Assembly: GCA_021129445.1 (NCBI GenBank)
Contig: JAJOLG010000010.1
Location: forward strand, 1-19,967
From: Candidatus Altimarinota bacterium
Lineage (GTDB): Bacteria > Patescibacteriota > Gracilibacteria > GCA-2401425 > JAJOLG01
Length of the DNA stretch: 19,967 nucleotides
Direction: 5' to 3'
Positions 1,351 through 18,544 of the stretch are shown in pieces (position 1 is the stretch's first letter; every line of letters begins with the position of its first letter). The notes beneath the pieces were generated by a model. That model saw nothing but the letters and a program-made list of their open reading frames with translations. It had not been told where the DNA came from and did no database searches. The position numbers were made by a program, and so were the translations under genes.

Positions 1351-3069
1351 ATGAAAAATATTAACAAAATTAAATTAAATATTTTCGACAAAATTGCATT
1401 TTGAATTTTAATAATTTTCGCAATTTTTATACCATTTCATGCATTTTTAGTAACATTTTTACCACATTTTTTTTGAAATTTGTGATTTTGAAATTTTTTT
1501 TGATTGTGAAAATTTTTTTTGGTTTGGAAAGAAATTTTATTTTTAGTTTTAAGTTTTTTGTTTTTTTGAAAATTTTTGCAAAACCTTTTTTTTAACTTAA
1601 AAGAAGATAAAAAATCAAAAAATAATCTGATAAAAAAATTTTTTTCTCATTGAAAAAAAGAAAATTGTATCAAAAAATTTTTTTTGTGATTTAAAAATTT
1701 TTTTTATTTATCAAAAAAATCTTTTCCGATTCAGCAGTTTTTTTTCTTTGATAAAATTTTTTTAGCATTTTTTTTAATCGCAGTAATTCCAGTATTTTAC
1801 AGGTTTTTTACTTGAAGTTTTTGAGAAAATTTTTTACTTCAATCGATTTTTTGATTTAGGGTGGATTTTATTTATTTTTTAATTTTTTATTTGATTCGTT
1901 GATTTTCTTTTAACCTTACTCAAATTAAAAAATTTTTTTATGTTTTTATTTTTTCTTGATTAACAGCTTTGATTTTTTGATTTTCTCTTTATTTATCAAG
2001 TTTTAACCGGGTTCCAGAAAAAATTATTACTTCAAAAAAGAATTTTATTGAAATTTCTGATGAGAATAAAAAAATTATCAAACAATTTTATTTTCACAAA
2101 AGTTGAGAAAATGACGATATTTTGAGAAAAAAAGAGGGTTTAAATGAAAATGAAAAAATAATTTTAGAGAAATTTTTTGAAAATCCAGACTTAATAAATT
2201 TTAGAAATGAGAATTTTTTAAATTTAATGGTCGATAAATTTTGATATTCGCCAGGGGTGTCAAATTATGAAGTTCAAAAGGCTTTGCCGGCTTTTCATAT
2301 TGTTGAGGCGAAATGAACGGCAAGGTTAGCGGCTACTTTTTCTTGACCAAATCAGCTTTGATTTTTTTTGATGGTTTTTATCGGTGTTATTTTATGATTT
2401 TTAAAATTTTTATTTAAAAATAATTGATGAAAAATTGAAAAAATATTCTTGATTTCGGTTTTGATTTTTTCCTTGATTTGCCTTTATTTTTCTTTTTCAA
2501 GGTCGGCATGGCTTTGAATTTTATTGATTTTTTGATTATTTGCATTTTTTTCATTTCCTCAAAAATATCATTTAAAAATCTTCTTTTGATGAATTTTTTT
2601 ATTGGTTTTAACAATTTTTTACACATATTTTTTTCAGCAGGATTTTTTTGAAAGAACGATTTTAAGATGAGGTTCAACGGCAATGCACTTTGAGAGAAGT
2701 TTGGAATGAATTGGTCAAGTTGTAGAAAAACCGCTTGGATATTGACTTTGATTTGCATGACCAGTTTCAATGAAATTTCCAGAAAATTGAGTTAAAATTG
2801 CAGAAAATTGGTTTATCCAAATGTTTCAGGAGTTTTGAATTTTGTGATGAATTTTTTATTTATTTTTATTTTTTAATTTTTTGGTATTTTTAATCAGAAA
2901 ATTTTTATCAGAAAAATTCGATAATTTTTTGATTTTTTGATGATTTTTAGGGCTTTGTGGTGTTTTACTTGCAGGGTTATTTTTACATAGTTTTGAAGAT
3001 ATTTGAGTCTCGATTTTGTTATTTGTGATTTTATCTTTATGATTTCAAAAAAAGTTTTGACACACTTAG
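1351..3069 (+). CDS. O-antigen ligase/polymerase (Wzy/WaaL-like) membrane protein
   Basis: A 572-residue, very Phe-rich polytopic membrane protein with about ten or more hydrophobic segments. Family marks are SGPNQLG near residues 331-337 followed by a TM segment, FSRSAWLGILLIF near 381-393 (the SRSxxLG motif of O-antigen ligases), and a late periplasmic loop with ERSLEGIGQVVEKPLGYGLG near 449-468, where the family has its HNxxL-type loop. The family transfers or polymerises undecaprenyl-linked glycans at the outer face of the cytoplasmic membrane. A charged segment of about 90 residues (roughly 225-320) precedes SGPNQLG and is probably extracytoplasmic. Residue 220 is a CGG codon (possibly Trp). 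The start ATG at 1351 lies 18 nt after the previous stop. Whether it is a ligase or a polymerase cannot be decided, and no glycosyltransferase cluster surrounds it. Confidence 0.8.
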
Positions 3070-3193: not shown

Positions 3194-6100
3194 ATGAACC
3201 TACAAAACCTTCTAAACACAAAATCTTTACAAAAACTTCAAAAAGAATTTGAAGAACAATGAAATTTAACAATTTCAGGTTTTTCAAATGTTTCTTCGAA
3301 AATTTTTATTACTGATTTTTTTATGAAAAAAAATCGGTGAGAAAATTTTTTTTGGATTGTTAATTCAAAAGATGAGTTACTTGAAACTGAAAAAAATTTA
3401 AAAGTTTTTTTATGAGATGATGTAGAAATTATTGTATGAAATAAAGGTTTATCTGAATGAGAAAAAAATTTTTTCGTCTCAGAAATGTTTAAAGATGATA
3501 AAAGGACTAAAATTTTTGTGTTTGAAAAATCATTTTTGTTTGAAAGTTTTTCTCCATTTGAAAATCTTAAAAAAGATTGATTTTTATTGAAAGAATGAGA
3601 AAAATTTGATGAATATAAATTTTTGGAATTTCTAAACTCTGCAGATTACAAAATGTCAAGTGAGGCAAAAATTTTAAAATGAGAATTTAGAAAAATATGA
3701 AATTTAATTGAAGTTTTTCCGATAAATTCTGAAAATGTTTTAAAAGTTTTTTTTGATTGAGAAAAAATTTCTGAGATTGAAAAAATTTTTTCTGATATTT
3801 GAAAAAAATCTGAAAAACTTGAAAAATTTTTGATTTTGCAAAATAAATTTTCTGCTACAAAAAAAACTTTTTTGGATATTTTTCAAACAAATTGAACTGT
3901 GATTTTTGACGAATTATTTTTGGAAACCGGTGAAGAAATTGCGAAATTGTGAAAATTAAGGTTTAATAAATATCTGGATTTTAATTTATTTCCAGATGAT
4001 GATAAAAAATTTCATCATTTAAGATATTTATCAGTTTTGAAATTTTATAATGAGGCGGATTTTGTGCTTGATTTAAATGAGAAAATTAAGAATTGATGGG
4101 ATATTGTTTTATGAACAAAGAGATTTGATGAATTGAAAAGTATTTTGGATGAAAATAAATTGAATTTTGTGAAAATTTCTCCAGAGAAAATGAGGCGAGG
4201 TGCCTCTGAGTGTAAAATTCAGGTTGTAGAAATTCCAAAAGATTGATTTTTGCCATCTTGATTTCAAAATCCTGATGATAAAACCTTGTTTTTATCGGAA
4301 AAAGAAATTTTTACAATTCAAAAATCCAAGAGAAATCAATCGATAAAAAAAATGTCTTTGGATTTTATTACTTCTTTGAAAGAAGGTGATTATGTGGTGC
4401 ATTTTGATCATTGAATTTGACTTTTTGAGTGAATTATTTCGCAAAATATTGACTGAATTCGTCGTGAATATTTGGCAATTTCATATCAATTATGAGATAA
4501 AATTTTTGTTCCAATTGATCAAATTGATAAAGTTTCAAAATATTTATCTGATGAATGAGTTATTCCAAAAATTTCAAAATTGTGATCAAATTCGTGGAAA
4601 GTTTTGCAAAAAAAGGTGAAAGATGAAACAAATAAAATTGCAAAAGAGCTTTTGAGTATTTATGCAAAAAGAAAAAAGGCAAGAAGAGAATCATTTTTAG
4701 AGGATACAGAATTACAAAAAAAGTTTGAAAAAACATTTCCATATGAGGAGACACCTTGACAAATGCAGGCGATTTGAGATGTTAAAAAAGATATGGAGTG
4801 AGAAATTCCAATGGATAGATTGGTGGTTTGAGATGTTTGATTTTGAAAAACTGAGGTTGCAATGAGGGCGGCTTTTAAGGCAACAGAATCAGGAAAACAG
4901 GTTGCTGTGATTGCCCCGGTGACAATTTTGGCAGTTCAACATTTTGAGTGATTTAAAAAAAGAATGGCAGAATTTTGAAAAAAAATTGCAGCAATGACTC
5001 GTTTTCAAAGTCAAAAAGAGCAAAAAGATGTTTTGAAAAAATTAGAAAATTGAGAAATTGATATTGTAATTTGAACTCACAGGTTATTTTCCGATGATGT
5101 TAAATTTAAAAATTTATGACTTTTAATAATCGATGAAGAGCAAAAATTTTGAGTAAAACAAAAGGAGAAAATTAAAAAGATGAAGGCAGATATTGATATT
5201 TTGACCATGACTGCAACACCGATTCCTCGTACTTTAAATATGTGATTAAATAAACTTCGTGATATTTCGACAATTACAACTCCGCCTCAGTGAAGACTTC
5301 CGGTGATTTCTGAGCTGAGAAAATATTCTGATGCAATTACAAGAGATGCTATTTTAAAGGAGATTAAGAGATGAGGACAAGTTTATTTTCTTCATAACCG
5401 AGTTGAAACTATTGAGTGAATTGCTGATAAATTGTCAAAATTAGTACCGGAAGCAAAATTTATTGTTGCGCATTGACAACTTTCTCCACATGAGCTTGAA
5501 GAGAGGATTTTAGCATATAAAAAATGAGAATATGATGTTTTGATATCGTCAACCATCATTGAAAATGGGATAGATTTATCAAATGCTAATACTATGATTG
5601 TAAATAATGCTGAAAAGTTTGGACTTTCGCAACTTTATCAACTTCGTTGAAGGATTTGAAGGTCAAAAAGGCAGGCTTTTGCATATTTTTTATATCACAC
5701 AAGGTGAGTTTCTGTTGATGCAAAAAAAAGATTAAGAGCAATTGTTGAAGCTTCTGAGTTATGAGCTTGATTTCAAATTGCAATGAAAGATTTGGAAATT
5801 CGCTGAGCAGGGGATATTTTGTGAGCAAAGCAAAGTGGTTCGGCGACTTCAATTTGAGTTTCACATTTTTTGAGAGTGTTAGAAAAAGCAGTTGAAGAAA
5901 TGAGATCTTGATGAAATTTGCAAAAAAATTGAGAGGAAAATTTTGATTCAACAACAATTGATTTGCCAATAAACTGATTTATTCCAGATTGATATATTAC
6001 AGAAATTAACGAAAAAATGTCAATTTATCAGAAGCTTTCAGCGACAACAAATGAAAAACTTTTGAGTGAGATAGTGTCAGATATTGAAGAGGAGTATTGA

Positions 6101-6461: not shown

Positions 6462-6932
6462 TTACCCTCAATTTATCAATTTCTTCAAATTTTTCGCTAA
6501 ATTTCTATTTGTATCTCTCTCTTTTATTGCATTTCTTTTATCAAATTTCTTTTTTCATTTTCACAAAGCAATTTCAATTTTAATATATCTTCATTTCGTC
6601 AAAATTGCAGTTGGAACCACGGTGTATCAAGGCTGATCTCATTTTGAGAAAAATTTTTCAATTTCTGATTTTTTTGCCAAAATTTTTCTTGATTGTTCTG
6701 GAAAGTGATCAAAATGATTTGGTAATTTTGAATATTTTCAAATATTTAAATTTTTTACCCGCATTTCTAATTTATCAGAACCTCAATTGTTAAAAGAAAT
6801 ATATGCTCATTTCATTGAGCAGTTTTTTTCACGAAGCGCTTTGACTTCGTATCATTTTAATTGCATTCAGCAAATTAAATGATTTGAAAGTTCGTAGTCG
6901 AAATTTGCCTTTTTGTTTTTACAGATTATCAT
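6462..6932 (-). CDS. smpB: SsrA-binding protein SmpB
   Basis: A 156-residue protein that binds tmRNA (SsrA) and delivers it to stalled ribosomes for trans-translation. Family features in order: KNKKANFDYEL at residues 5-15, QLKGYEVKALR near 24-34 (usual ELxGxEVKSLR), a KSEIEKF segment near 88-94, GYTVVPTAI near 102-110, and the basic tail GKKKFDKRNAIKERDTNR (usual GKKxYDKRxxxKxRD) ending at TAA. The length is typical. Glycines in QLKG, GYTVV and GKG are TGA. Residue 58 is CGG at a place where Trp is plausible. The start is ATG at 6930-6932. It lies 213 nt downstream of dnaB on the same strand. The tmRNA gene is not seen in this window. Confidence 0.93.
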
Positions 6933-9512: not shown

Positions 9513-9579
9513 AAAATTTCACTTGTTTTAAATGCATCAAAATCTAGTGAGAAATACTTAATTATTTCTCTTGAAGTTG

Positions 9580-9912
9580 ATGATAGTAGATGGCTATTTT
9601 TCTTATATAAATTTTATTAATACAAAATTAGATGACATTGAAAAAACGACAAAAGAAATTGAAAATTTAAATGAATGAGAAAGAAATAAGCTATTAGAAT
9701 TAGAGATTTTTGTTGATATTCTAAATAAGGCTGAAGAATACTATAAGAATGCCGACTATGTTCAAAAGAGAAAAATCGCTAAAATCTTGCTTTTGAATAT
9801 AGTCGTAACACACGAAAAAAGGCTTGAAGTTCAGGTTAAACCTGACCTTCAAACCCTCTTTAATTCTGTATGGCTCCCCCGACAGGATTCGAACCTGTGA
9901 CCAAAAGATTAA
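9580..9912 (+). pseudogene. C-terminal remnant of a large serine recombinase
   Basis: About 110 residues remain. The part from about residue 18 resembles the C-terminal tail of phage/ICE-type serine recombinases: a coiled segment (DDIEKTTKEIENLN), then ILNKAEEYYKNAD, QKRKIAKILLLNIVV and VQVKPDLQTLFNSVW. The catalytic resolvase domain and the zinc beta-ribbon are absent, and TAA stops lie just upstream, so it cannot be active. The frame runs through the tRNA-Asn gene in antisense (LPRQDSNL) and stops at 9910-9912. Such reading into a tRNA fits integrases located at their attachment site. Codons such as GTC, CTC, AAG and AGG are more frequent than in the neighbours, as expected for acquired DNA. 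The ATG given is only the first in frame; the true 5' boundary is unknown. Confidence 0.7.
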
Positions 9913-9945
9913 CAGTCTTCTACTCTACCGCTGAGCTACAAGGGA
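9871..9945 (-). tRNA. tRNA-Asn (anticodon GTT)
   Basis: A complete cloverleaf with an encoded CCA (9871-9873). Acceptor TCCCTTG pairs with CGGGGGA, with two U-G pairs. The D arm contains AGCGGTAGA. The anticodon arm GAAGA-CTGTTAA-TCTTT gives anticodon GTT. The T arm is ACAGG-TTCGAAT-CCTGT. It begins 4 nt after the trm11-like stop on the same strand, so the two are probably co-transcribed and the tRNA is processed out. Its 3' half is overlapped in antisense by the recombinase remnant and is a likely attachment site. Confidence 0.95.
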
Positions 9946-11336: not shown

Positions 11337-13832
11337 ATGGAGGAAAATACAACATTTAATCATCTTGAAATTGAAAAAAAATGGCAAGATTTTTGGGAAA
11401 AAAATAAAACTTTTAAAACTGAAATAGATAAAAATAAAGAAAAATTTTATATTTTGGATATGTTTCCATATCCATCTGGTGCATGATTGCATGTTTGACA
11501 CCCTGAGTGATACACGGCTTCGGATATTTTGGCGAGATATAAAAGATTGAAAGGATTTAATGTTTTACACCCGATGTGATGGGATGCTTTTTGACTTCCT
11601 GCTGAGAATTATGCGATAAAAACGGGGACGCATCCATCAATTACAACTCAACAAAATATTGAAAATTTTACAAAACAAATTAAATCAATTTGATTTTCTT
11701 ACGATTGGGATAGAGAAATAAATACAACTGATGAAGATTATTACAAGTGGACTCAGTGGATTTTTTTGAAATTATTCGAAAAATGATTGGCATACGAAAC
11801 AAAAATGCCAATAAATTTTTGTCCGTCTTGCAAGACTTGATTGGCAAATGAGGAGGTTGTTGAGTGAAAATGTGATAGATGCAATTCTGTGGTGGAAAGG
11901 AAAAATCTTCGTCAGTGGATGTTGAAAATTACCGAATATGCACCGCAATTGCTTGAAGATTTGGATACATTGCCTTGATGGAGTGATTCTTTGAAGGCGA
12001 TGCAGAGGAATTGGATTTGAAAAAGTGAGGGGTGTGAGTTTGAAATGTTGAAAGATTGAGATGGTTTTAAAAAAATCTCAGTTTACACAACTCGTATTGA
12101 TACAGTTTTTTGAATGACTTATGCGGTTTTAGCACCTGATCATAAAGATGTGAAAAAATTTATTACTGATGAAAAAAGAGAGGAGTGTGAAAAATATATT
12201 GAACAATCTTCAAAAAAATCTGATTTGGATAGAACTGAACTTGCAAAAGAAAAAACTTGAGTTTTTACAGGTTCTTATGTTGTAAATCCTTTTAATTGAG
12301 AAAAAGTTCCACTTTGGATTTGAGATTATGTTTTGGGGAGTTATTGAACTGGGGCAGTGATGGCTGTTCCTGCGCATGATGAAAGGGATTTTGAGTTTGC
12401 GAAGAAGTATTGATTGGAAATTGTAAATTCTATTTGATATGAAAAAATAAATATTAATAATTGTGTATTAGATGAATGAGTGGCTTCAAAGGTTTATGCT
12501 GAAACAAAAATTATCAATAATAAAAATATTTATATAATTATTTGAGAACCAACTATTCAAGATTGAATTCTGATAAATTCCTGAGAATTTACCGGTTTAA
12601 CTTCAAAAGAAGCAAGAGAAAAAATATCTAAATTCGCAGAAGAAAATAATTTTTGAACAAAAAAAATAAATTTTAAATTAAGAGATTGGGTATTTTCTCG
12701 TCAAAGATACCGGTGAGAACCAATTCCAATTGTACATTGTGATGATTGTTGAATGGTTGCGGAAAAAGAGGAAAATTTACCATTAACTTTACCAAAAGTT
12801 GAAAAATATGAGCCATCGTGAACATGAGAGTCTCCACTTGCAAATATTGAAGAATGGGTGAATTGTAAATGTCCAAAATGCTGAAAACCTGCAAAAAGAG
12901 AGACAAATACTATGCCACAATGGGCTTGATCTTCATGGTATTATTTGAGATATATGGATCCAAAAAATTCTGAAAAATTTGTTTGAGAAGATGCTGAAAA
13001 ATATTGGGGGCAAGTTGATGTTTATGTTTGAGGTGCTGAACATGCAGTTTTACATTTGCTTTACGCGAGATTTTGGCACAAGGTTTTGTTTGATTTATGA
13101 CTTGTTTCGCATAAAGAACCATTTAAAGAATTGAGAAATCAAGGGCTTGTCATGGCATTAGATTGAGAAAAAATGTCAAAATCAAAATGAAATGTTGTAA
13201 ATCCAGATGATGTAATTCAAGAATTTTGAGCTGATACTTTGAGACTTTATGAAATGTTTATGGGGCCATTTGATCAAAATGTTGCTTGGGATACAAAATG
13301 AATAAAATGAGTGAAAAGATTTTTGGATAAAGTTTGGAATTTGAGAAAAAAGGTTGATAAAGATTTTGAAAACTCTGATGAGGTTTTAAAAAATTTGCAT
13401 CAAACAATAAAAAAAGTTTGAGAAAAAATTGAGAAATTTGAGTTTAATACTGCAATTTCTGATATGATGGTTTTGGCAAATTTATTGCAAAAACAAGAGA
13501 AGATTTCTAGATGAGTTTTTTATAATTTTCTAAAAATTTTAAATCCATTCGCACCTCATTTAACTGAAGAATTAAATGAAATTTTATGGTGACAAGAAAT
13601 TTTAGCTTATCAAAAATTTCCAGAATATAGTGAAAAATGGTTAACTGATAATGAAAAAATTTTCCCAATTCAGGTAAATTGAAAAGTTCGTGCGCAATTG
13701 AAAGCTGATAAAGATATTTCAAAAGATGATGCGATAAAGGAGGCTAAAAAGTTGGTTGAAAAATATTTGGAATGAAAAGAAATTAAAAAAGAAATTTTTG
13801 TTCCTGGGAAAATTATTTGATTTGTTGTTTAA
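11337..13832 (+). CDS. leuS: Leucyl-tRNA synthetase
   Basis: An 831-residue class I synthetase charging tRNA-Leu. Class I signatures are [18 protein letters not shown] (HIGH form HVGH at about residues 50-53) and GEKMSKSKGN at about 611. A zinc-like CPSC...CDRC pair is near 164-184. The CP1 editing domain has the T-rich TTRIDTVFG at about 247 and [16 protein letters not shown] at about 336. The catalytic core has [10 protein letters not shown] followed by xGEPIPI, and [18 protein letters not shown]. Residue 459, the invariant Trp of RYWGEPIP, is encoded by CGG (12711-12713), evidence for Trp recoding. Length is usual. The anticodon-binding and C-terminal domains are complete ([13 protein letters not shown]). 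A MoxR gene follows after 17 nt, suggesting one transcript. Confidence 0.97.
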
Positions 13833-14826: not shown

Positions 14827-14853
14827 AAAAAGCGGGTAAACCCCGCTTTTTTT
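14827..14853. terminator. Strong bidirectional terminator between moxR and the amidase-SpoIID gene
   Basis: AAAAAGCGGG ... CCCGCTTTTT forms a GC-rich stem flanked by A and T runs, giving a T tract on either strand. It lies between convergent genes: 12 nt after the moxR stop, and touching the stop codon (14852-14854) of the minus-strand gene. It is the clearest rho-independent terminator in the window. Confidence 0.9.
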
Positions 14854-17800
14854 AATGTAGCTTTCAAATATCAACTCATTGATAATAATAATGTAAAATT
14901 TTTCTGTAAGACCATCACATTTGCCCAAATTTTTCTGCTCAAAGTCAAGAAAGCCCAACTCAATGCCCACATAATCTCAATCTGTATCTCCTTGTGTCTT
15001 TTCAGTGTTTGTCATTTACACTTTGATAAACCGATGAAACTTTATTAAAATATTCACCTTTCCATCCTGCCTGAGCTGGTGTTTTTGTTTTTCAATTTGA
15101 GCAAGAAAAAAATGCAGTTTTTAAAATTTCTCAATTAAATCTCAAAATTTCTCATTTTGTTTCACGAAGGGCTTGTTGCCATTTTGGTGATCTTTTTTCA
15201 TATCATGCACCTAAATATTTTTGAAAAACATCTGGATCGTCTGATCAATCATAATTTTTTCACGGAAATTTTCTGTATTTTGTTTTTGTGTAAAAACTTG
15301 CATAAGACCTTGCAACAACAGTCAAAGCCTTTCTTTTTTCGTGATTTGAAGATTCTGGAACCTCTGCAATTCATTTCATGTAATCTTCAATATCCAAATT
15401 ATTTATTACCAAAATTTTTCATTTTACACGATTATCAAGTGCATAAACTTCTATTTTTCATCTAAAAAAATTATCGTTTATTTTTTTATTCCAAGCAGGT
15501 GAGTGGATCCAGTTTTTTAAAAATACAAATCAATTATCAGCTTTTATTGAAAAATATTTTCACCAATATTTTTTTCAATCAATTGAAACAATAATTTTTT
15601 TATTTCAGTCTGATCTTACCCAAATATTATTTTTTTCTGTGATAAAAAATTTTTTTCTGTCCAAAAAAATTTCTCAATTTATAGGTCAAAAATTTTCTGA
15701 TTTAATTCAAAAATTTACTGCATTATGCGGAAAAGATAATTTTATTTTGATATTATTTTCTTCATTTTCTAAAAATGAAGTTTTTTTTGTTTTTTCTAAA
15801 ATTTTTTCATTTTCAATTGATTTTTCTTTTTGAATTTTAGATTTTTTTTCATTTGCAATTTTTTCCCTCATTAGTCTTATTTTTTCTGCGATACTTAATC
15901 AAGATTCAAAATAAAGTTTTGGTTCTTTTTTTGCTTTAATTTTTTCTCATGAAACAACTGTGGTTTCAAATTCAGTTCATTTAATTGTTCAGATTGAATT
16001 TACTCTTGTAAAAAATTTTTCCGTGAAAGTTCAATTTTGATTTGCTTTTACTTTAAAAATAAAAGTTGCAGTTTTTCATGGTGAAACTTTATTTTCTTTC
16101 ATTAAGGCTACAATATTTTTATCAATCCAAGATTTTGAGTAAAGTTTTGAATTTGAATTTGTGGTTCTCAAAGAGATTCTATTTTTTCAATTTTTATACC
16201 ATGTTATGTTTGTTTTATTTTTAATTCTAACAATTACTGTTCATTCTGTTCATTTTTTTAAAAATAATTTTTTTGCTGATAAATGTGTAATTATTCAAGA
16301 AAGATTTGCTTCTTTTACTTCAATTTTTAGTTCAAATCTTCATAATCTATCAAAATTTTTTCAATTTGCCAAAGCTTGTAAAGTAGCTGTGTAAGTTCAA
16401 GGTTTTGTTGGGGCTTGAATTGTTACATCAGCGAATCCGGCTTGATGTCTAGGGACGAAATCTATAATTGGATAAACGAAGCTATCAAATTTTAATCATC
16501 ACGAACGAACTACATGAAAAGAAACTTGTTCGCTTTCCCATGCAACATCTGAAAGATTTTTTAATCAAATTTTTACAGTTTTTTTCTGACCTGTTAAAAA
16601 AACATTTTCACGAGATTTTCTCAATAATTGTGCTCTATAATGCGGTTTTTTAACTTTAATATTAAACTGCATTGAGCGGTCTCATAAAAAAGTGTCTTCT
16701 CAAATTACAGGAATAAATTTTTCCTGATATTCTCATGCGATCATTGGAGCTCTTAAAAAAAATTCAAAAGTTCAAAATTCTCATGGTTCAACTGTTTTTT
16801 CTTTTAACCTTGCTAAAATTGTGTCATTTGATCACTCTTCTTTTATTACAAAAGGCGAACGTCTTCACATTTGAAAAGTTTTCAATTTTATCGCATGATC
16901 TCATGAACGAAACCATTTTGTATTTCAAGTGTTTTGTAAAATTATTTTTGCATAAAAAGATTGACCTCAATAAATCTCTCTTGGAGGTTGTTTTAGTTGA
17001 ACAAATTGATAAGAATTGCTTGCTCATTTTACTTTAACCGGCTGAACAATTGTTCATTTTGTAAATTTTGTTGTTCAGTTTATAATTGGTACAAATTCTA
17101 AAGAATAAAGCCCGGATTCATATCAAGAAACAATTGTAACCTTAAAATGTCCAATTCATCAAGGATAAACCTTGTCTTCTTCTAAATTTGCAGCAACATA
17201 ATTTTTATCTGGAAAAATTGATTCTACATAAAGATTTCTATTTGTGTTATCTGCTACATAAAGCCAGGTTCATTTTGTCCAAGTTTTATTTGAAGTGTTT
17301 TTATATGTAAAAGTAATTTGTTTTTCAGTTGTTGGTTGCATTTCAAGAACTGAAATATCTGTTTTTATTTCTGCAATATTTTCGTATGATGAAAAATTTG
17401 TTGTTTCTTTTATGTCAAAATTAAAATCTGATAATTCAATTTGTTTTCTAATTGAAGGGATTTTTTTGTAAAGATTATCTCATGGACAGGCAGTTTTTCA
17501 AACATCTCTGTGTCAAAGGATATTTTGTGAATAAACTCAGTGAAAATATGAACTTTTTGTAACATCTAAATTGTATTTTGCTCATAAATATGCAATCAAT
17601 TTTGAAAGTGATCTTAATTGAGCCAGTGTTGGTTTTTGGTTTTGAAAATTTCACATCATCGAAATTCATAAACTTCCAATATTATAGCATTTTGCGTGGG
17701 CTCAAACTACATAATCTCAACCAGATTTTCATTCATAAATATTTCATTTTTGGTCGATTATATAATGATAACCAATATCTCACCACCTTTTTGTTAAGGT

Positions 17801-18544
17801 ATGATACCTGTAAATTCATCTCATTTTTTGTTTTCATGGTAAAAATTGAGATTTGTAGGATTCAGCTGTGTGATGAATTATGATTTTTTTGATATCTTTT
17901 GAATATTGATGAGGCCATAAAAGTGGTTTTCAAAATTCGTTGTAAATTATTTTTGCATAAGTTTTTTCATCTGATTTTAATCATGAATTTTCACATGTTG
18001 AATAATATCTTGTTACATTGTATTGAGTTTTTTTAGGTTTTGCATCTTCTGAATAATTAAACCTTAAACTTTCATCTGCTCACCATTCTTTTCTTGAAAT
18101 AATTTTTATTCATCTGGTAAAATTATTTATTCATGCAACAAAATTATCAAAAAAATTTTCTTTTGGTATTAAATTTTTTTTCCATCAAAAAATTTTTACC
18201 GCTCAACTTGAAGAAATTTTTATCCGTTGAGAATTTTTTATGTCTAAAATTTGAGAAAAACTTCATTTTTTTTCGTTTCATTTTTCAAAATTATGAAATC
18301 CATCTCATAAATCTTCCGTCATTTTAAAAATTTTTTTCTCAGAATTTGTTTCTAAAAAAGCTTCTTTTTGTCAATTTAAAAATTGTAAATGAATTGTATC
18401 AATTTCAGCAGGAAGACGAATCCATTGAGAATTGTTAACTTCTAAATTTACTGAAAAATCTCTTGTTGTTGATAAAAGAGTTTCATTTGTTGGTAAAAAA
18501 ATAAATAAAATAAAAGTAAATATTGTTAAAAAAATTTTTTTCAT
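14852..18544 (-). CDS. Secreted amidase / multi beta-sandwich / SpoIID-LytB fusion protein
   Basis: A single 1230-residue frame. Residues 1-20 (MKKIFLTIFTFILFIFLPTN) look like a signal peptide. Residues about 147-365 form an Amidase_2/PGRP-type N-acetylmuramoyl-L-alanine amidase: SRKEWGADESL, IIIHHTAES, RWGDIGYHYIID, GISMMGNF and GHRDVGKTACPG. Likely zinc ligands are H224, H345 and C353, as in T7 lysozyme. Residues about 390-866 hold about four Ig/NBR1-like beta-sandwich domains, shown by recurring Asn-rich turns before Trp (YKNTSNKTW, LQNTGNTKW, LKNLSDVAW, IKNKTNITW). A charged helix or coiled coil follows (about 884-925). Residues about 1020-1230 match SpoIID/LytB: IEDYMKGIAEVPE with the predicted catalytic Glu1061, KALTVVARSYASF, AFFSCSNGKT, CGHGVGLSGLGAEKFG and YYYQGVDI. 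The two enzymatic halves would strip stem peptides and then cleave denuded glycan. CGG at residue 107 sits in NSQ-x-IKI, paralleling NSQWIRL at 38-44. EF-Tu lies upstream on the same strand. Confidence 0.88.

What the first reader, a model, noticed from the sequence alone, without database searches (positions are those of the whole stretch)
12711..12713. CGG appears to encode tryptophan
Seen: in LeuRS the invariant motif RYWGEPIP is read TAC-CGG-TGA-GAA-CCA-ATT-CCA, placing CGG on the Trp. Other in-frame CGGs occur at SmpB residue 58 (a position tolerating Trp), at fusion-protein residue 107 (NSQ-x-IKI, parallel to NSQWIRL in the same protein), at ligase-like residue 220 and at Mfd residue 48. 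None of those I found is at a conserved Arg. Arg is otherwise AGA, AGG and CGT. Known, from memory: genetic-code surveys reported CGG and/or CGA reassigned to Trp in Absconditabacteria-type genomes on top of UGA-Gly. Inference: this genome carries that sense-codon change.
Basis: partly seen in the sequence, partly recalled or inferred. Interest (0 to 1): 0.75.

Follow-up and report, generated by a model that had tools for sequence, protein, structure and literature searches.

The report
Bacterium reading arginine codon as tryptophan
In this uncultured, very AT-rich bacterium the codon CGG, which nearly all life reads as arginine, most likely means tryptophan; this kind of change is known in related bacteria, but here the sister codon CGA has stayed arginine and the nearest classified relative uses the standard code, so the change may have arisen a second time.

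Summary
In detail: the in-frame codon at 12711-12713 is CGG, at the Trp of the LeuRS motif RYWGEPIP. All 102 alignable standard-code LeuRS have Trp there. In 520 kb of the 673 kb genome I ran a Codetta-like test. CGG (20 sites) is inferred as Trp (posterior 0.96; Trp over Arg by 16 log units). It is the only one of 62 codons that departs from NCBI table 25. CGA (14-16 sites) stays Arg. An Absconditabacteria-like genome gives CGA and CGG = Trp in the same test; two standard genomes give Arg.

A CCG-anticodon tRNA exists and is a hybrid: Trp-like acceptor end (A1:U72, G73) on an Arg-like body (A20, C31). Its identity is undecided, so charging is not shown.

CGG=Trp in low-GC UGA=Gly bacteria was predicted in 2021 for Absconditabacteria and some Gracilibacteria, so the kind is known. 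What may be new is the lineage. The only held genome of the same order keeps RF2 and standard UGA. The other UGA-recoded families group apart from this genome in four-gene distances. LeuRS alone says otherwise, and a 19-gene test is undecided. A second origin of both changes is possible, not shown.

The parts
12711..12713 (+). CGG codon 459 of LeuRS, at the conserved Trp of RYWGEPIP
   Evidence: position; Trp in 102 of 102 alignable standard-code LeuRS; TGG is the codon in nearly all
11337..13832 (+). leucyl-tRNA synthetase gene, 831 aa under UGA=Gly, 44 in-frame TGA
6759..6761 (-). CGG codon 58 of SmpB, at a position that is hydrophobic or aromatic in solved SmpB proteins (L, L, F aligned), never Arg in the alignments shown
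18224..18226 (-). CGG codon 107 of the amidase_2/SpoIID fusion protein (NSQ-[CGG]-IKI; the same protein has NSQWIRL)
2008..2010 (+). CGG codon 220 of the O-antigen-ligase-like (Wzy_C) protein; no aligned reference
3335..3337 (+). CGG codon 48 of Mfd, in a variable N-terminal region; uninformative
5399..5401 (+). CGA codon 736 of Mfd (FLHN-[CGA]-VETI): CGA at an Arg position, evidence that CGA is still Arg

Best explanation
In this genome (NCBI table 25, UGA=Gly, about 25% GC) CGG has been reassigned from Arg to Trp while CGA, CGU, CGC, AGA and AGG remain Arg. Inferred mechanism: AT pressure made CGG nearly extinct as an Arg codon (3.8 per 10,000). The single dedicated tRNA with anticodon CCG, probably derived from a tRNA-Arg(CCG), then acquired a Trp-type acceptor end (A1:U72, G73; C35 is shared with tRNA-Trp) and is charged by TrpRS, so CGG is now an occasional second Trp codon beside UGG. 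Shown: the codon-to-column association and the tRNA sequence. Inferred: charging with Trp, origin of the tRNA from an Arg tRNA, and absence of competing Arg decoding of CGG.
For: LeuRS motif Trp. Codetta-like inference over 520 kb: CGG = Trp 0.956, 16.4 log units over Arg, 20 sites; 61 of 62 codons otherwise recover table 25; random Arg-codon subsets never favour Trp. Positive control G041: CGA (219 sites) and CGG (9) = Trp; negative controls G048 and G045: CGG = Arg. Individual sites: LigA KSPR[CGG]AVAYKF is Trp in both standard-code relatives aligned and in E. coli, Phe in Thermus; AlaRS SEIFY[CGG] is Trp in G045 and G041; SmpB; TatD-like and YibE/F-like sites have F/Y. tRNA-CCG has A1:U72 and G73, as the f12 tRNAs-CCG have U72 and G73, whereas nearly every standard-family tRNA-CCG found has A73. 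CGG=Trp is published for neighbouring clades (PMC8629427).
Against: CGG is rare (40 codons in 105,000), and only four sites strongly favour Trp; with two of them removed the best guess becomes Tyr, though never Arg. The tRNA-CCG carries A20, the main Arg identity element, and under the Codetta rule (A20 plus A/G73) would count as Arg-type. One CGG aligns with Arg in a variable stretch (ORF o2852). How CGA is read as Arg without reading CGG is unknown: no tRNA-UCG was found, but about a dozen expected tRNAs are missing from the assembly.
Confidence: 0.87

Rival explanations
1. CGG is still Arg (or nearly unused); the LeuRS Trp-to-Arg change and the other sites are tolerated substitutions, and the tRNA-CCG with A20 is an ordinary Arg tRNA.
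For: A20 and the Arg-like anticodon stem of the tRNA-CCG; E. coli tRNA-Arg(CCG) also has G73 (from memory); CGG is rare and few sites are conserved.
Against: Trp beats Arg by 16 log units and 0 of 2000 equal-sized samples of real Arg codons look like this; CGA, equally rare, gives Arg in the same test; LeuRS Trp is unbroken in 102 references.
Confidence: 0.07
2. Ambiguous decoding: the hybrid tRNA-CCG is charged with both Trp and Arg, an intermediate stage of reassignment.
For: The tRNA combines Arg-type A20 with Trp-type A1:U72 and G73; non-aromatic residues at several unconserved CGG sites.
Against: CGG at the LeuRS core Trp and at the LigA position would then give part of two essential enzymes with Arg; no CGG is seen at a conserved Arg position.
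Confidence: 0.2
3. On history, not on meaning: the two code changes were inherited from the common ancestor of Absconditabacteria and Gracilibacteria (class JAEDAM01) and this genome is simply a basal member; its placement beside standard-code G001 is a tree artefact.
For: LeuRS groups with the UGA-recoded f15 family (SH-aLRT 98); DnaB favours G041 by 14.6 log units; 19 genes without two outliers do not reject it (AU p 0.27); a review states that UGA=Gly is restricted to that lineage with one origin.
Against: The taxonomy behind the tool puts it in one order with G001, which has RF2 and no in-frame TGA; EF-Tu is nearest to G001 (84%) and then to standard-code f11 (77-79%), above f15 (69-75%); in four-gene distances f15, f22 and f24 all side with f12 against this genome, and G000+f12 versus G001+f11 is the worst overall topology; its tRNA-CCG body differs from the f12 type.
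Confidence: 0.5

Closest known systems
Absconditabacteria (SR1) code: UGA=Gly, CGA and CGG=Trp (Shulgina and Eddy 2021, PMC8629427)
   Same: UGA=Gly, CGG=Trp, low GC, rare CGG, a tRNA-CCG with U72 and G73
   Different: CGA is Arg here; tRNA-CCG here has A20 and C31 (Arg-like body) whereas f12 tRNAs-CCG have T or C at position 20; different order
Gracilibacteria (BD1-5) with predicted CGG=Trp, some members only (same paper)
   Same: UGA=Gly, CGG=Trp
   Different: This genome is placed in another order, next to a standard-code genome; the tRNA-CCG pattern was found in only 1 of 16 f15 genomes
Anaerococcus and RFN20 Bacilli: CGG=Trp, CGA=Arg (same paper)
   Same: Split meaning of CGG and CGA, low GC, tRNA-CCG
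   Different: There CGA is presumably read by inosine-modified tRNA-ACG; here only tRNA-GCG, CCG and CCU were found, no ACG or UCG; UGA is stop there

Membership tests
CGG-to-Trp reassignment (kind) | CGG associates with Trp columns across the genome | tested here: met
CGG-to-Trp reassignment (kind) | CGG found at conserved Trp positions of single-copy genes | tested here: met
   LeuRS 102/102 Trp; LigA Trp in both standard-code relatives aligned and E. coli (Phe in Thermus)
CGG-to-Trp reassignment (kind) | tRNA-CCG with Trp identity (G73, not A20; A/G1:U72 as support) | tested here: inconclusive
   G73 and A1:U72 met, but A20 present
CGG-to-Trp reassignment (kind) | Trp at CGG in peptides or charging assays | not testable with these tools
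   needs the cell or in vitro charging
Absconditabacteria code | CGA also means Trp | tested here: not met
   CGA = Arg, Trp worse by 26-32 log units; control G041 gives CGA = Trp
NCBI table 25 (UGA=Gly) | In-frame UGA at Gly columns, no RF2 | tested here: met
   TGA = Gly at 4224 sites; no TIGR00020 match in G000, though RF1 is not found either
JAEDAM01 (Absconditabacteria/Gracilibacteria) clade | Phylogenetic membership | tested here: inconclusive
   EF-Tu and distances against, LeuRS and DnaB for, multi-gene tests undecided

The most novel reading that the evidence does not exclude
A lineage outside the Absconditabacteria/Gracilibacteria clade evolved the same two changes, UGA to Gly and CGG to Trp, independently from a standard-code ancestor shared with its order-mate, using a different tRNA route (an Arg tRNA with a converted acceptor end) and leaving CGA as Arg.
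Probability: 0.4. Interest if true: 0.85.

Novelty: new member of a known kind. Interest (0 to 1): 0.6.

Why it matters
Sense-codon reassignments in bacteria are few and recent. A genome in which CGG is Trp while CGA is Arg, in a group that appears to lack the inosine tRNA which makes such a split easy, is a direct test case for how a codon box is divided. Its tRNA-CCG looks caught between two identities, which makes the 'change the acceptor end first' route testable in vitro. If the lineage really lies outside the known UGA=Gly clade, both changes would have arisen twice as a pair, contradicting the single-origin view of UGA=Gly. In practice, tools that translate such genomes with table 25 put Arg in place of Trp at CGG.

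Tried and rejected
First tblastn tally mixed in antisense and tRNA-gene pseudo-ORFs that aligned CGG with Arg; these were removed. The first tRNA pattern had the wrong gap length and found only noise; corrected. A 21-gene quartet first seemed to reject a G000+f12 grouping (AU p 0.001), but one gene (o2794, likely transferred) carried most of the signal; without it and LeuRS the test is undecided (AU p 0.27), so I do not use it as proof. LeuRS as a species marker was rejected as prone to transfer. Contig C21 (L156) has 30.7% GC and no TGA in its one matched ORF and may be foreign; the CGA result was rerun without it. M23 peptidase and AlaRS sites are weak in the wider family (E. coli AlaRS has Asp there). 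Literature searches found no report of CGG=Trp or UGA=Gly outside the known clades.

Full report
Observation. The window is contig C3 of a 673 kb, 77-contig draft genome (94.8% complete). With UGA=Gly the LeuRS frame 11337-13832 is open with 44 TGA codons, and codon 459 at 12711-12713 is CGG in SRQRY-[CGG]-GEPIP. The Thermus LeuRS has Trp there; of 102 alignable standard-code LeuRS, 102 have Trp, nearly always as TGG.

Genome-wide test. I read 41 of the 77 contigs (520 kb, window included) and compared all open frames, with CGG and CGA masked, with standard-code genomes G045 and G048 and about 110 LeuRS-centred loci. Each site was scored by BLOSUM62 log odds, one vote per site. Of 62 codons with at least 15 sites, 61 gave the table 25 amino acid. 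The exception is CGG: 20 sites, Trp 0.956, Tyr 0.043, Arg worse than Trp by 16.4 log units. CGA, equally rare, gave Arg (0.99; 0.90 after removing one doubtful contig). Random samples of 20 sites from AGA, AGG or CGT never favoured Trp over Arg (0 of 2000 each). The same pipeline on G041 (family f12) gave Trp for CGA (219 sites) and CGG (9), as published for Absconditabacteria, and Arg for both codons in G048 and G045. Limits: four sites carry most of the Trp signal; without the two best, Tyr is the top guess, but Arg is not. Good sites are LeuRS; LigA KSPR[CGG]AVAYKF (Trp in G045, G048 and E. coli, Phe in Thermus); an AlaRS site that is Trp in G045 and G041 but Asp in E. coli; and positions with aromatic or hydrophobic residues in SmpB, TatD-like and YibE/F-like proteins.

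tRNA. Rfam tRNA and ARAGORN searches found 26 tRNA genes. The Arg-type anticodons found are GCG, CCG and CCU; UCU and UCG were not found, but neither were Met, Glu and several others, so absence means little in this draft. The tRNA-CCG lies at G000:C5:3026-3102, next to tRNA-CCU. It has A1:U72 and discriminator G73, the Trp elements used by Shulgina and Eddy, but also A20, the main Arg element. Pattern searches in 68 genomes of the class (assembled) show two types: f12 genomes have T or C at position 20, U72 and G73; standard-code families have A20 and A73. G000 is mixed, with an Arg-like anticodon stem as well (C31). The simplest reading is an Arg tRNA whose acceptor end was converted, while the f12 tRNAs have a Trp-like body. 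This is a sequence argument; charging was not tested, and by the published rule the tRNA would count as Arg-type. It is the main weakness of the case.

Mechanism. CGG is nearly unused (3.8 per 10,000 codons against 207 for AGA and 63 for TGG), as expected from 25% GC, so giving it a new meaning would harm few proteins. A dedicated tRNA-CCG, sharing C35 with tRNA-Trp, needs few changes to be charged by TrpRS. How CGA stays Arg without its tRNA also reading CGG is open: in Anaerococcus and RFN20 Bacilli an inosine tRNA is presumed to do this, but no tRNA-ACG was found here.

Relation to known codes. UGA=Gly with CGG=Trp is published for Absconditabacteria (with CGA=Trp) and for some Gracilibacteria (PMC8629427). 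So the finding is a new member of a known kind, and not the Absconditabacteria code itself, since CGA=Trp was tested and not met.

A second origin? The only other held genome of the order, G001, has RF2 above the curated cut-off (394 bits) and no in-frame TGA in LeuRS, EF-Tu or RF1. G000 has no RF2 match; neither do the f12, f15, f22 (G065) and f24 (G140) genomes searched, which read through TGA. G000's EF-Tu is nearest to G001 (84%), then f11 (77-79%, standard), above f15 (69-75%) and f12 (67-71%). In four-gene quartet distances (YchF, RecA, MraY, Tgt) f15, f22 and f24 all side with f12 against G000 plus f11 (RecA alone dissents), and the topology needed for a single origin with G001 outside (G000+f12 versus G001+f11) is the worst of the three in total and in all four genes under the simpler distance. 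Against this, the LeuRS tree puts G000 beside f15 (SH-aLRT 98), DnaB favours f12, and 19 concatenated genes with G041, G048 and G045 are undecided (AU p 0.27 against 0.77). A recent review says UGA=Gly is restricted to the Gracilibacteria/JAEDAM01 lineage with one origin. I therefore rate a second origin as possible (about 0.4) and not shown.

Verdict. CGG most likely means Trp in this genome (0.87). Direct protein evidence and tRNA charging are missing.

Noticed in passing
G000:C8:1944-2019 (L011/L143): A second tRNA with anticodon CCA has C1:G72, A73 and G37, unlike the usual tRNA-Trp; the likely true tRNA-Trp is at C4:12830-12904 (G1:U72, G73). What the odd one carries is unknown.
   Followed up: partly
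G065 (f22) and G140 (f24), outside the window: Two further families of the class read through TGA sparsely and have no RF2 match above the cut-off, so UGA looks recoded there too; the tRNA-CCG of G065 is Arg-type (A20, A73).
   Followed up: partly
window 9571-9912 (+) and 9871-9945 (-): A 113-aa ORF ends inside the antisense of tRNA-Asn (...PRQDSNLGPKD*), with no Pfam match; possibly the end of an integrated element at the tRNA.
   Followed up: partly
G000:C21 (L156): Contig with 30.7% GC, little recognised coding and no TGA in its one matched ORF: possibly a foreign or mobile contig in the bin.
   Followed up: partly
G000 whole assembly: Neither RF1 nor RF2 is matched, and tRNAs for Met, Glu, Arg-UCU, Gly-UCA and others are missing, so the draft has gaps in the translation gene set.
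   Followed up: no
window 14852-18544 (-): Fusion of an amidase_2 domain, an Ig-like domain and a SpoIID domain in one 1230-aa protein; an unusual cell-wall enzyme architecture.
   Followed up: no
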